Below are positions 36,785 to 40,731 of a stretch of DNA of 51,063 nucleotides, piece after piece. The position numbers and the translations under genes were made by a program. The notes under the pieces were generated by a model. That model had not been told where the DNA came from. It was given only the letters and a program-made list of their open reading frames with translations, and did not search any database. Source of the DNA: Nitrospirota bacterium (GTDB lineage: Bacteria; Nitrospirota; Thermodesulfovibrionia; Thermodesulfovibrionales; JdFR-86); assembly GCA_037386965.1 (NCBI GenBank), contig JARRLN010000055.1, positions 1-51,063 of the forward strand. The letters run 5' to 3'. The number at the start of each line of letters is the position of its first letter. The first letter of the stretch is position 1.

Positions 36785-37150
36785 ATGGCGCGCCGGCTCA
36801 TCGTTTTCGTCCTTATTTTCCTGTTCCTTTTCTCCGGGAGCGCCCTGGCCGCCTCGGGAGAGGTCATCTTCACCGACGTCGTCTACGGTGCGGCCATCGG
36901 CGCGGTCGTGGGCGGGGCGGTCTATCTGGTCGACCAGGACCACCTGGGCGAGAAGATGGGCATCGGCATCCTTGTGGGGGCCGTGGGCGGCCTTGTCCTG
37001 GGGGTCTCCGACGTGGGGAGCCTGGTGCAGATACAAAACAACGAAGTAAAGGTCGCCACCCCGACGATCAATATTCAGGACCGCAAGGAAGAGATGTCGC
37101 AGGAAGAAGACGTGGTGGTGCGCGCCAGCATCCTGGGCGTGAGGTTCTAG
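36785..37150 (+). CDS. Small exported or membrane protein, 121 residues
   Basis: Not assigned to a family. It has a signal peptide (Arg-Arg, a Phe/Leu/Val core, cleavage near ALA-AS, residue 22). Two Gly/Ala/Val-rich hydrophobic stretches follow (about residues 33-47 and 58-73), like a glycine-zipper hairpin, then a polar C-terminus rich in Gln, Glu and Val. GGGAGGT lies 4 bases before the ATG, and a perfect TATAAT at 36747-36752 could be its -10 box. The TAG stop at 37148-37150 is in the same frame as the L,D-transpeptidase that follows. Confidence 0.7.
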   Translation: MARRLIVFVLIFLFLFSGSALAASGEVIFTDVVYGAAIGAVVGGAVYLVDQDHLGEKMGIGILVGAVGGLVLGVSDVGSLVQIQNNEVKVATPTINIQDRKEEMSQEEDVVVRASILGVRF

Positions 37151-37162
37151 AGGGGGGAGCCG

Positions 37163-37684
37163 ATTCCCGGAGTAAAGGGGAAGTTAGGCGCAGCACTCGT
37201 TGTCCTTTCCCTCGCCTTCCTATCTTCTTACCCGTCACCTAGCAACGCAGAAGACGAGCCGTGTTCCTCGGATAAGAATCCTCATATCGTCGTCCGAACG
37301 CAGGCCGGGCGATTGTCTCTCTGCGCATCGGGGCACGTGCACCGGACATTCCCGGTATCCATCGGACGCCGAGGCACAGGGAAGTATAGCGAAGGCGATG
37401 GTAAGACACCCCTGGGCACCTATTCTTTAGGCAAACCTCGCCCATCGCGTAGATTCCATATCTTTATTCCCGTCCATTATCCCACTGCGGAACAAAAGGT
37501 CAGCGGTTTCACGGGCAGCAACATCGGCATACACGGGCCTTGGTGGGCTTTGGCATGGTTGGGAAGGCTCACGACGTGGGTGGACTGGACAGCGGGCTGT
37601 ATCGCCGTGGGCAGGAATTCGGATATCCGGGAAATTGCAAATTGGGTCGCAGAAGCGAAGCCAGACAAGATCATTATCCAGTGA
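37163..37684 (+). CDS. L,D-transpeptidase (YkuD domain), start codon unclear
   Basis: The frame after the TAG at 37150 reads a signal-peptide-like segment, GKLGAALVVLSLAFLSS with cleavage near SNA-ED, then an YkuD domain: FPVSIGRRGTGKYSEGDGKT, PLGTYSLGKP, IGIHG (the His of the active site) and WTAGCIAV with the nucleophilic Cys. These enzymes form 3-3 cross-links or anchor proteins to peptidoglycan. No ATG, GTG or TTG precedes the signal peptide; ATT 37163, 4 bases after GGGGGGAG, is the best placed codon, and TTG 37313 would remove the signal peptide. Either a rare start or a mutated start codon is present. It marks the left edge of an AT-richer island. Confidence 0.7.
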   Translation: MPGVKGKLGAALVVLSLAFLSSYPSPSNAEDEPCSSDKNPHIVVRTQAGRLSLCASGHVHRTFPVSIGRRGTGKYSEGDGKTPLGTYSLGKPRPSRRFHIFIPVHYPTAEQKVSGFTGSNIGIHGPWWALAWLGRLTTWVDWTAGCIAVGRNSDIREIANWVAEAKPDKIIIQ

Positions 37685-37844
37685 CGCGACGAGAAAACAA
37701 TATCTTCATCTCATCGCCACTCGTGGTTTCCTTCCTGAACTAAATATTGACATAGAGGGCCCAAGAGTTATAAATTACAACCAATAATCGATAGGCACAA
37801 ATGGGGAAATTCTATTTTAGTTCCAAAATAATGGGGCATTTATA

Positions 37845-38543
37845 ATGGCGTTAAAGAAGTGCAAAGAATGCGGACATGAGATCAGCTCAAAAGCAAAGCG
37901 TTGCCCTAATTGTGGTGCACCTCTCAAAAAGGGAATAGGTTGTGGTACTGCGTTTCTGATTATTATTCTGGCAGCGATCTTCATTCCTTACCTTATAGCG
38001 AAGAATTACGAGTACCCAGAAACTGAAACAACTAACGTAGGTTCTACATATAAATCAACAGGTGAAAGTAAACCTACACGTGGAAAACGTTATGCTCACC
38101 AGACTATTAATATCAGGTCAGGACGCGGAACAGATTTTAAAGTGGTAGGCTCATTAAGAAGAGGAGAAAAAGTAGAAGTAGCCGACTCAGAAAATGGTTG
38201 GATTGCTGTTTATAAGAATGGCGATAAGAAGGGATTCGTATATGAGAAGTTGCTAAAATCCTATCCCTTACCTTCATTTGAAATTGAAAATTGGAACTGG
38301 TATAAGGATCCATCATTTGGCACCAGAGGTGCGGTCATATGGACTGTCGAGGTACGCAATAATACAAATAATTACGTAGAACTTCTCAAGATTGAATTTA
38401 CAACATATGATGCGAAGGGCAATATTATTACTAGCGATTTCGCATACGTTGAAGGTCTATCCCCTGGAGGAACTGCTTCCACAAAATCATATGCCACTTA
38501 TTTTGGCAAAGAAGAGAAAGCAAAGATAAGAATTGTCCCTTGA
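37845..38543 (+). CDS. Zinc-ribbon membrane protein with SH3 and FxLYD-like domains
   Basis: A 232-residue protein. The N-terminal zinc ribbon CKECGHEISSKAKRCPNCG (residues 6-24) faces the cytosol, a hydrophobic segment at about 37-52 spans the membrane, and a bacterial SH3 domain (INIRSGRGTDFKVVGSL, about residues 86-145) is followed by a C-terminal beta domain with WTVEVRNNTNNYVELLKIEF, similar to FxLYD. Such proteins are thought to sense or bind cell-wall material. GC content is clearly lower than in the flanking chromosome, suggesting recent transfer. No ribosome-binding site of note; it stands 160 bases after the L,D-transpeptidase. Confidence 0.8.
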   Translation: MALKKCKECGHEISSKAKRCPNCGAPLKKGIGCGTAFLIIILAAIFIPYLIAKNYEYPETETTNVGSTYKSTGESKPTRGKRYAHQTINIRSGRGTDFKVVGSLRRGEKVEVADSENGWIAVYKNGDKKGFVYEKLLKSYPLPSFEIENWNWYKDPSFGTRGAVIWTVEVRNNTNNYVELLKIEFTTYDAKGNIITSDFAYVEGLSPGGTASTKSYATYFGKEEKAKIRIVP

Positions 38544-38604
38544 AGATAAAGACTGGTAGAAAAAGAAGGCTATATAACCTCAGATTCTTGCATAAGCTCA
38601 TATT

Positions 38605-39258
38605 ATGAAGCACTTTGCGCATGTCATTGCATGGCTGTCTGAAATATTGTTGAGAGATGAATGGTCAAACCTTGCTTTAAAGCTGAAAGAGCAATATTTT
38701 GCATTTCTGATTGAACTCGACAACCGACCGTCTCAACCGCTTCAGTCTCTCCTAATTTCAGGAGAAGACCACAGGTTCTTTTCACATGGCGGTATTGATG
38801 TGATCGCTGTCTGCAGGTCTCTGTGGCGTACCTTCATTGTAGGTAAGCGGGAGGGTGCAAGCACAATTGAAATGCAGATTGTTCGTGTACTCACGGGGCG
38901 CTTTGAAAATACCATCCGAAGAAAAATCAAGGAAATGGCTCTGGCTACTCTAGTCGTACGAGTTGTTCCAAAGTCCGTCTTGCCTAGTATCTATTTGCAA
39001 ATCGGATACTATGGGTGGCAAATGGACAGCTTGAGAGCGGCTTGTCAGCGTCTTTGCATCGATCCTTCTGCGATTGCAACTGAAGACGTAGCAAGCTTGG
39101 TTGCCAGAATTAAATATCCACAGCCAAGACATATTACTGACGTCTGGACTAGAAAGATTGAAAGACGGTCAAGGCATTTGCTTACCCTATACAAAAGCCA
39201 TCAATGTGGAAGAACTTATGCGGGCTTATCCGCACGGGTGAGATATGCAACCATTTAG
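38605..39258 (+). CDS. Peptidoglycan glycosyltransferase-like protein (GT51), stand-alone
   Basis: A 217-residue protein related to the transglycosylase domain of class A penicillin-binding proteins. Motif 1 is EDHRFFSHGGID (catalytic Glu54), motif 2 is GASTIEMQIVRVL in place of GGSTITQQ, motif 3 is RRKIKEMALATLV with the Lys and Glu, and motif 4 is VLPSIYLQIGYYG, with Gln where Asn is usual. No membrane anchor or signal peptide is visible, unlike MtgA or PBP1. The low GC content and the 14-base overlap with the nucleotidyltransferase gene suggest a transferred two-gene module. Whether it still uses lipid II is uncertain. Confidence 0.75.
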   Translation: MKHFAHVIAWLSEILLRDEWSNLALKLKEQYFAFLIELDNRPSQPLQSLLISGEDHRFFSHGGIDVIAVCRSLWRTFIVGKREGASTIEMQIVRVLTGRFENTIRRKIKEMALATLVVRVVPKSVLPSIYLQIGYYGWQMDSLRAACQRLCIDPSAIATEDVASLVARIKYPQPRHITDVWTRKIERRSRHLLTLYKSHQCGRTYAGLSARVRYATI

Positions 39259-39931
39259 AGTTTCGCCAGCCCTTGATCTACTAGTGGATTTTTACCCTGC
39301 GGCTCGAATTATTGCTGATGCTGCACTGAAAGGAAAGATCGACGATCGTCAGGCAATCGTTCGCCTTTGGCTATCCGAGGGCATTCCTTTTGCCTTTCGT
39401 GCTAAACCCGCACTGTACGAATCTATCAGAGTTTGGCTGGCGAATAGGCTTGACGTTGGGCCAAAGGATATTACTCTAATAGGAAGCGCCCGCTTGGGCC
39501 AATCGATGAGCCCCGATGATAACTTTGGCCGTGAGTTTGGGGCGCAATCAGACTTGGATATAAGTGTCATCTCCGTAGAACTCTTTAGTAAAGTTCGGGA
39601 CGCTTACCTTTCGTGGGCAAATGATTATGAAACTAGTACGATATTACCAAGGAATGCAGCGCAGAGAAAGTTTTGGCCTGAAAACCTTAGAGTATGCTCT
39701 GGCACAATACAGCGAGGTTTTATAGATCCTGACAAAATACCTACACTGGACAGGTATCCTATTATACAAGCGATACAACAAGCAATGTATCTCCTTCCAG
39801 AAAAACTTCGTCAGACCACAGAAGCGCCTAATGTCAGGAAAGCGAGTATACGCACATTTAATAATTGGGACGCATTTGTGAATCAGGCCAGCCTAAATCT
39901 AGAAATCGTTGCAAGGCGAATAATACCTTAA
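39245..39931 (+). CDS. Nucleotidyltransferase-fold protein, overlapping the GT51-like gene
   Basis: A 228-residue soluble protein. The nucleotidyltransferase signature is present: the LIGSARLGQS loop (Gly80-Ser81) and, after an insertion, SDLDISVIS with Asp103 and Asp105, the metal-binding pair. An Asp-Tyr-Glu/Trp-rich middle and a C-terminal NNWDAFVNQASLNLE helix complete it. Similar folds act as antitoxins, as nucleotide second-messenger synthases or as tRNA modifiers, and the substrate cannot be told here. It overlaps the GT51-like gene by 14 bases, so the two are coexpressed. No integrase or transposase is seen nearby. Confidence 0.7.
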   Translation: MQPFRVSPALDLLVDFYPAARIIADAALKGKIDDRQAIVRLWLSEGIPFAFRAKPALYESIRVWLANRLDVGPKDITLIGSARLGQSMSPDDNFGREFGAQSDLDISVISVELFSKVRDAYLSWANDYETSTILPRNAAQRKFWPENLRVCSGTIQRGFIDPDKIPTLDRYPIIQAIQQAMYLLPEKLRQTTEAPNVRKASIRTFNNWDAFVNQASLNLEIVARRIIP

Positions 39932-40101
39932 AATAACGTTTCTCGGTTCTGAAGAGCTGTTGCTGATCTACGTACGCCTTGTTGAAACCATCGTATGTTT
40001 GTTTCGGATGAAGTCTTCAACAGTTTCAATCTTTTGAACCTATTGACTCGCGGTGAAAGCCGCAACCCCTCATCTCCTCCCCCGAAAACGACCAAAAGCC
40101 C

Positions 40102-40731
40102 TCACACGCCCACAACCTCCCCCACCACCTGCATCACCCGCCGGTGCACCTCCTGCATGCTCCCCTCGGCGCTGACCACGCGGACGCGCTCCGGTTCCTT
40201 CTTAGCGATGGCAAGAAAGCCCTCCCGCACCCGCCGGTGAAAGGCCGTCTCCTCCTGCTCCAGCCTGTCAAGGAGCTTGCCCGCGGCCCGGTTCCTCTCA
40301 AGCCCCCGCTCCACCTCCATGTCAAGCACGATGGTCAGGTGCGGCCTGAGGCCTCCCGTGGCCAGCCGGTCCACGGCATCCAGGGTCTCTGCGGCAATGC
40401 CCCGCGCGGCGCCCTGGTACGCGCGGGTGGAGTCGCTGAAGCGGTCGGTTACGACCGTCTTCCCCTCCGCAAGCGAGGGCAGGATGACCTCCGCGAGGTG
40501 CTGCCTGCGGGAGGCGGCGTAAAGGAGAAGCTCGGTCATGGGGTCCATGCCCTGGTGGGCGGCATCCAGGAGGAGCGCCCTGATTCTCTCCCCCAGGGGG
40601 GTCCCGCCCGGCTCGGCCGTAAGCACCACGGGGATGCCCCGCGCCCTGAGGGCATCGGCAAGGAGCGCGGCCTGCGTGGACTTTCCGGTGCCTTCGATGC
40701 CCTCGAGGGAGATGAACACCCCCTCGGGCAT
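40102..40731 (-). CDS. tmk: Thymidylate kinase
   Basis: A 209-residue kinase converting dTMP to dTDP. The P-loop is GIEGTGKST (residues 11-19), followed by TAEPGGTPLGERIR, the DRFSDSTRAYQG segment and a lid with ERNRAAGKLLDRLEQE. An acidic LDMEVERGLERN follows the Walker B-like strand. ATG 40731 shares a base with the stop of the MetE-like gene upstream (TGATG). Complete and of normal length; the island on its downstream side ends about 20 bases past its stop. Confidence 0.95.
   Translation of the reverse strand: MPEGVFISLEGIEGTGKSTQAALLADALRARGIPVVLTAEPGGTPLGERIRALLLDAAHQGMDPMTELLLYAASRRQHLAEVILPSLAEGKTVVTDRFSDSTRAYQGAARGIAAETLDAVDRLATGGLRPHLTIVLDMEVERGLERNRAAGKLLDRLEQEETAFHRRVREGFLAIAKKEPERVRVVSAEGSMQEVHRRVMQVVGEVVGV

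What the first reader, a model, noticed from the sequence alone, without database searches (positions are those of the whole stretch)
38605..39931. Two-gene module: soluble GT51-like transglycosylase overlapping a nucleotidyltransferase
Seen: a 217-residue protein keeping the GT51 motifs (EDHRFF, GASTIEMQ, RRKIKE) but with no signal or membrane anchor, overlapping by 14 bases a protein with GSARLG...SDLDIS nucleotidyltransferase residues. Both are AT-richer than the chromosome and sit with an L,D-transpeptidase and a zinc-ribbon/SH3 protein. Known: GT51 enzymes normally act on membrane lipid II; nucleotidyltransferases near toxins or second-messenger systems are often defence or antitoxin parts. 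Inference: this may be a defence, toxin-antitoxin or nucleotide-modification system that uses or mimics peptidoglycan substrates.
Basis: partly seen in the sequence, partly recalled or inferred. Interest (0 to 1): 0.72.

Follow-up and report, generated by a model that had tools for sequence, protein, structure and literature searches.

The report
Paired cell-wall-type enzyme and nucleotidyltransferase module
Two overlapping genes, one for a cell-wall-building type of enzyme that seems to stay inside the cell and one for a putative nucleotide-transferring partner, travel together as a mobile unit through very different bacteria, plasmids and prophages, often beside virus-defence genes, so they are probably an undescribed bacterial defence or toxin-antitoxin-like pair.

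Summary
Window 38605-39258 encodes a 217-aa GT51 domain (PF00912, 93 bits) with both catalytic glutamates and no transmembrane anchor. It overlaps by 14 bp a 228-aa protein (39245-39931) with a nucleotidyltransferase (NTase) motif. Both lie in a 2.95-kb insertion that two genomes of the same family lack. The pair is a conserved unit: all 12 close NTase homologues found (own phylum, Betaproteobacteria, a tiny-genome bacterium, an Aliarcobacter plasmid, two prophages) sit directly behind a GT51 gene or, at contig ends, a GT51 fragment or a PBP transpeptidase domain. The overlap is exactly 14 bp in 7, and pairwise distances of the two proteins correlate. Six of the 12 sit among R-M, AIPR, Mrr, 3HP or bSEFIR genes, or in prophages. 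Eight more distant NTase relatives pair with DUF262/GmrSD_N (7) or TIR (1), so the NTase looks like a shared regulator of different effectors. PADLOC-DB 2.0.0 and the papers I could search do not describe it. Best reading: a mobile two-gene defence or TA-like module with an internal GT51 effector that attacks lipid-linked wall precursors, controlled by the NTase. Pairing is shown, defence is likely, the mechanism is inferred. The neighbouring L,D-transpeptidase and SH3 protein are not part of it.

The parts
38605..39258 (+). GT51-like (PF00912) transglycosylase without membrane anchor, 217 aa; putative effector
38764..38787 (+). GT51 motif I, EDHRFFSH (residues 54-61), first catalytic Glu
38854..38877 (+). 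GT51 motif II, GASTIEMQ (residues 84-91)
38917..38934 (+). GT51 motif III, RRKIKE (residues 105-110), second catalytic Glu
39245..39931 (+). NTase-like protein, 228 aa; putative regulator, antitoxin or sensor of the GT51
   Evidence: (model pLDDT 95.5)
39245..39258 (+). 14-bp overlap of the two genes, the same length in 7 of 12 loci
39482..39487 (+). NTase Gly-Ser (residues 80-81)
39548..39559 (+). NTase SDLD (residues 102-105)
37151..40101 (.). Insertion carrying the module: relatives G032 and G360 have the flanking genes (36785-37150 and the tmk-like gene from 40102) as direct convergent neighbours
   Evidence: GC
37845..38543 (+). Zinc-ribbon/SH3 protein in the same insertion; cargo neighbour, not a conserved part
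   Evidence: absent beside the pair in other loci

Best explanation
A mobile two-gene effector-regulator module, most likely anti-phage (abortive infection or toxin-antitoxin-like). The effector is a GT51 peptidoglycan glycosyltransferase that has lost its membrane anchor and so should work from the cytoplasmic side. When released it would polymerise or consume lipid II or related undecaprenyl-pyrophosphate sugars on the inner leaflet, stopping wall synthesis in the infected cell. The translationally coupled NTase-like partner would keep it in check, by binding or by nucleotidylating it as MNT does to HEPN, until infection. Shown by computation: the genes, conserved pairing, intact GT51 catalytic residues, no anchor, mobility, and defence or prophage contexts. 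Inferred: toxicity, inner-leaflet substrate, NTase as regulator, trigger.
For: Close NTase family: 12 of 12 loci have GT51, a GT51 fragment or a PBP transpeptidase domain directly upstream. 14-bp overlap in 7; distance matrices of the two proteins correlate (Mantel r 0.69, p about 0.001, n = 9). Contexts: inside a type I R-M cluster with AIPR/AbiU (L081); between 3HP and bSEFIR/PDC-S21 genes on a plasmid (L065); behind a type IIG R-M gene (L001); next to an Mrr_cat gene (L082); in two prophages (L068, L093). Eight distant NTase relatives lie beside DUF262/GmrSD_N (7) or TIR (1). Catalytic Glu pair and phosphate-binding R94/R106 kept, anchor lost. An E. coli sister GT51 without the NTase sits in cargo positions of P2-like and lambdoid prophages. 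Window copy lies in an insertion absent from relatives.
Against: No functional data. Half the 12 loci, the window included, have no recognised defence neighbour and no background rate was computed. NTase activity is uncertain: no third acidic residue is invariant and there is no significant fold match. Motif IV Asn ('YLN') is replaced, so lipid II polymerisation is not assured. In G101 the NTase follows a transpeptidase domain, odd for a purely cytosolic effector.
Confidence: 0.42

Rival explanations
1. CBASS-like signalling: the NTase senses infection and makes a nucleotide second messenger that switches on the GT51 (or DUF262, TIR) effector.
For: NTase motif; different effectors next to the same NTase family, as in CBASS.
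Against: The GT51 protein is just a GT51 domain with short ends and no ligand-sensing domain; no PADLOC CD-NTase match; no invariant third acid.
Confidence: 0.15
2. The NTase is the toxin or effector (modifying RNA, protein or nucleotides) and the GT51-like protein is its antitoxin or scaffold.
For: Nucleotidyltransferase toxins exist (AbiEii, MenT; own knowledge).
Against: The partners of the NTase family are themselves enzyme or effector domains (GT51, DUF262, TIR) and the GT51 active site is strictly conserved, which is unexpected for a mere antitoxin.
Confidence: 0.12
3. A superinfection-exclusion or wall-repair module of mobile elements: the GT51 reaches the membrane through its N-terminal helix and alters or repairs the wall against phage entry or lysis.
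For: Prophage locations; a transpeptidase domain in G101; hydrophobic N-terminal helix in some members, stronger in the E. coli sisters (hydropathy 1.7-2.1).
Against: No export signal or anchor in 10 of 10 NTase-paired members; some lack even the short helix (L065, L068, L102); periplasmic action would not explain an NTase partner.
Confidence: 0.15
4. An ordinary housekeeping transglycosylase next to an unrelated gene.
For: GT51 catalytic residues are intact.
Against: Pair and overlap conserved in distant hosts; own genome has its own GT51 PBP; patchy distribution and insertion site.
Confidence: 0.04

Closest known systems
GT51 peptidoglycan glycosyltransferases (SgtB/MtgA, PBP1C GT domain; PF00912)
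   Same: Fold, catalytic Glu pair, motifs I-III, phosphate-binding Arg/Lys.
   Different: No transmembrane anchor, motif IV Asn replaced, family-specific ARLKYPxP segment, carried on mobile DNA with an NTase.
HEPN-MNT type VII toxin-antitoxin (PMC7641770, PMC11586414)
   Same: Two-gene operon of an enzyme and a GSxnDxD nucleotidyltransferase.
   Different: GT51 instead of HEPN; GSx21DxD instead of GSx10DxD; much larger NTase (about 225 aa); nucleotidylation untested.
CBASS (CD-NTase plus varied effectors)
   Same: One NTase family beside different effector domains.
   Different: No CD-NTase match in PADLOC, no sensor domain on the GT51, no established product.
GmrSD-like DUF262 systems (GmrSD, BrxU, TgvAB, GrwAB; PMC12137116, PMC12409362)
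   Same: Distant NTase relatives pair with a DUF262/GmrSD_N protein; L081 is embedded in type I R-M genes as TgvAB is.
   Different: Those systems have DUF262 plus DUF1524 proteins and no NTase; the window module has no DUF262.

Membership tests
GT51 glycosyltransferase (PF00912) | Above the curated Pfam cut-off | tested here: met
   93.1 bits against 27
GT51 glycosyltransferase (PF00912) | Both catalytic Glu and motifs I-III | tested here: met
   E54, E110 invariant in 10 of 10 paired members and in 59 ordinary GT51s
GT51 glycosyltransferase (PF00912) | Membrane anchor before the domain, as in ordinary members | tested here: not met
   Hydropathy at most 1.27 against median 2.31; AlphaFold gives only a 14-residue N-terminal helix before the next helix
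GT51 glycosyltransferase (PF00912) | Lipid II polymerising activity | not testable with these tools
   Needs biochemistry
Pol-beta-type nucleotidyltransferase | hGS...DxD motif in a beta-strand/turn/beta-strand setting | tested here: met
   GSx21DxD; strands 76-79 and 103-109 in a pLDDT 95.5 model; hhalign to NTP_transf_2 set 55-90%
Pol-beta-type nucleotidyltransferase | Third catalytic acid | tested here: inconclusive
   No invariant third acid; D161 nearly invariant in the close family only
Pol-beta-type nucleotidyltransferase | Significant fold match to a solved NTase | tested here: not met
   Best hit a terminal uridylyltransferase at E 0.93
HEPN-MNT type VII toxin-antitoxin | HEPN toxin with Rx4HxY | tested here: not met
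   Partner is GT51
CBASS | CD-NTase recognised by profile | tested here: not met
   No PADLOC hit for the NTase
CBASS | Cyclic oligonucleotide product activates effector | not testable with these tools
   Needs biochemistry
Known defence system in PADLOC-DB 2.0.0 | Any component matched | tested here: not met
   No hit for either protein

The most novel reading that the evidence does not exclude
A new class of anti-phage system in which a bacterial wall polymerase of the GT51 family has been turned into an intracellular suicide enzyme that destroys the cell's own lipid II pool at the inner leaflet when its NTase partner detects infection; the same NTase family drives nuclease-like (DUF262) and TIR effectors, so it is a general interchangeable immune regulator.
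Probability: 0.27. Interest if true: 0.88.

Novelty: new variant of a known kind. Interest (0 to 1): 0.63.

Why it matters
Known defence and toxin effectors attack nucleic acids, NAD, nucleotides, membranes or translation; a wall-building enzyme used from inside the cell would open peptidoglycan precursors as an intracellular immune target. It would also define a family of NTase-like regulators with interchangeable effectors, easy to test in E. coli with catalytic mutants.

Tried and rejected
PADLOC, NCBIfam and Pfam gave no name for the NTase (98 only a chance-level NTP_transf_2 match at E 0.28). PDB profile searches and Foldseek against PDB and viral models (67, 75) gave no significant NTase neighbour. 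Phage records gave no NTase hit (13, 57) and a viral scan with the GT51 alignment found none. Paper searches for GT51, lipid II or transglycosylase in phage defence found nothing describing the pair. Considered and rejected: L,D-transpeptidase and SH3 protein as members (absent beside the pair elsewhere); a frameshift in the L,D-transpeptidase (its frame reads on into an export-signal-like stretch); terminal repeats of a mobile element at the insertion borders (none convincing); GT51 as phage lysis enzyme (only one of several prophage positions is near lysis genes).

Full report
Observation. GC falls from about 65% to 38-49% over about 37.65-40.05 kb. The first protein is a GT51 domain by Pfam (93 bits against a cut-off of 27) and by phmmer against solved peptidoglycan glycosyltransferases. 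Its AlphaFold model (pLDDT 79) matches the Aquifex and Staphylococcus enzymes. The second has no family hit (except a PHROG of unknown function at E 6e-8). It carries GS-x21-SDLD-type residues (GSx21DxD), folds confidently (pLDDT 95.5), and its family profile aligns to NTP_transf_2 proteins with the motif in register and an 11-residue insert (55% for the wide alignment, 90% for the distant subgroup, 15% for the close family alone, unrelated controls below 0.3%). MNT antitoxins have GSx10DxD (PMC11586414). Fold searches gave no significant neighbour, so 'nucleotidyltransferase-like' is the fair name.

Insertion. In two genomes of the same family (G032, G360) homologues of window 36785-37150 and of the tmk-like gene starting at 40102 are direct convergent neighbours. 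In the window about 2.95 kb lies between them. This insertion holds an L,D-transpeptidase of near-chromosomal GC, the zinc-ribbon/SH3 protein and the pair. No convincing terminal repeats were found.

The pair is conserved. Searches of genomes, viral contigs and plasmids gave 20 NTase-family loci. Twelve belong to the close family. Ten of these have a GT51 gene directly upstream on the same strand: window, L001 (from a 0.7-Mb genome), L002 (Betaproteobacteria), L065 (Aliarcobacter plasmid), L068 and L093 (prophages), L079, L080, L081 and L102. L082 has a GT51 fragment running off the contig end. L083 has a PBP transpeptidase domain (PF00905 E 1.7e-7) running off the contig end, so that effector may be a whole bifunctional PBP. 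The overlap is exactly 14 bp in seven (window, L001, L002, L065, L079, L081, L082); gaps are 2-25 bp in L068, L080 and L093. Pairwise distances of the two proteins correlate (Mantel r 0.69, p about 0.001, nine complete pairs, 30-51% identity). L102 is a decayed copy with stops and a transposase inserted. Frequency: six close members among 396 genomes of the own phylum, one among about 398 Pseudomonadota, no close member in 195 or 214 genomes of two other phyla. Some of these sample sets were built around a genome already known to hold the pair, so the rates are rough.

Other partners. The other eight NTase relatives also lie beside candidate effectors: DUF262/GmrSD_N in L067, L084, L086, L087, L090, L094 and L103, and a TIR protein in L085. 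In the DUF262 pairs the NTase comes first; in the GT51 and TIR pairs it comes second.

Context. L081: hsdM, hsdS, a small membrane protein, GT51, NTase, DUF3800, AIPR (PADLOC AbiU), hsdR. L065: PADLOC Hp1/Hp2/Hp3 upstream, DrmC-like, bSEFIR and PDC-S21 downstream. L001: type IIG R-M gene 230 bp upstream. L082: Mrr_cat gene downstream. L068: behind P2-like U and D genes. L093: between tail/Dam genes and an integrase. That is six of twelve; I did not compute a background rate. A sister GT51 without NTase occurs in 5 of 5,426 E. coli genomes and one plasmid, in cargo sites of P2-like and lambdoid prophages, overlapping an upstream gene for a small membrane protein.

GT51 anatomy. Against 59 ordinary GT51 proteins the paired ones keep E54, D55, H61, G84, S86, T87, Q91, R94 (K or R elsewhere), K107 and E110. 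In S. aureus MGT, Lys140 and Arg148 hold the donor phosphate (PMC6053601); these correspond to R94 and R106 here by my alignment of the motifs. The paired proteins lose the motif IV Asn (98% elsewhere) and gain ARLKYPxP. No member has an anchor-strength hydrophobic stretch before motif I; all 58 measurable ordinary ones do. The window copy has an N-terminal helix (residues 2-15) that may be amphipathic.

Interpretation. Shown: real genes, conserved coupled pair, mobility, catalytic residues, no anchor. Likely: defence or toxin-antitoxin-like role. Inferred: the GT51 acts on inner-leaflet lipid-linked precursors and the NTase restrains or triggers it. A second-messenger scheme is less likely because the GT51 protein has no sensor domain. 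Whether the NTase is catalytic is open, since no third acid is invariant. Neither PADLOC-DB 2.0.0 nor the searched papers describe the pair; subscription papers and newer databases could not be checked.

Noticed in passing
L095 8037-8672; L096 and L097 8033-8677; L066 9812-10483: E. coli prophages and one plasmid carry a sister small GT51 without the NTase, overlapping by about 22 bp an upstream gene for a ~180-aa protein with an N-terminal hydrophobic segment and no family hit: a second candidate two-gene module.
   Followed up: partly
L067 7878-9534; L084 109-1712; L086 6752-8342; L087 7664-9272; L090 224-1821; L094 329-1975; L103 5390-6900: Seven loci with a distant NTase relative directly before a DUF262/GmrSD_N gene; the NTase members checked (L084, L087) have no PADLOC hit, so this may be a separate undescribed pair.
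   Followed up: partly
L085 7665-9387: TIR-domain protein followed by a relative of the NTase on the same strand.
   Followed up: partly
L083 2-784: In G101 (same family as the window's genome) the NTase follows a penicillin-binding transpeptidase domain with STLK, SNN and KTG motifs; the contig end hides whether a GT51 domain and an anchor precede it.
   Followed up: partly
window 37151-37684: L,D-transpeptidase (YkuD) whose frame extends upstream of the first listed start (TTG 37313) into an export-signal-like stretch without an obvious ATG/GTG/TTG start.
   Followed up: partly
window 37845-38543: Zinc-ribbon plus SH3 plus FxLYD-like protein at 38-41% GC whose N-terminus resembles PHROG 14275, a phage family of unknown function.
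   Followed up: no
L102 7367-9764: A decayed copy of the pair: stops before the NTase motif and a DDE transposase inserted in the NTase gene.
   Followed up: partly
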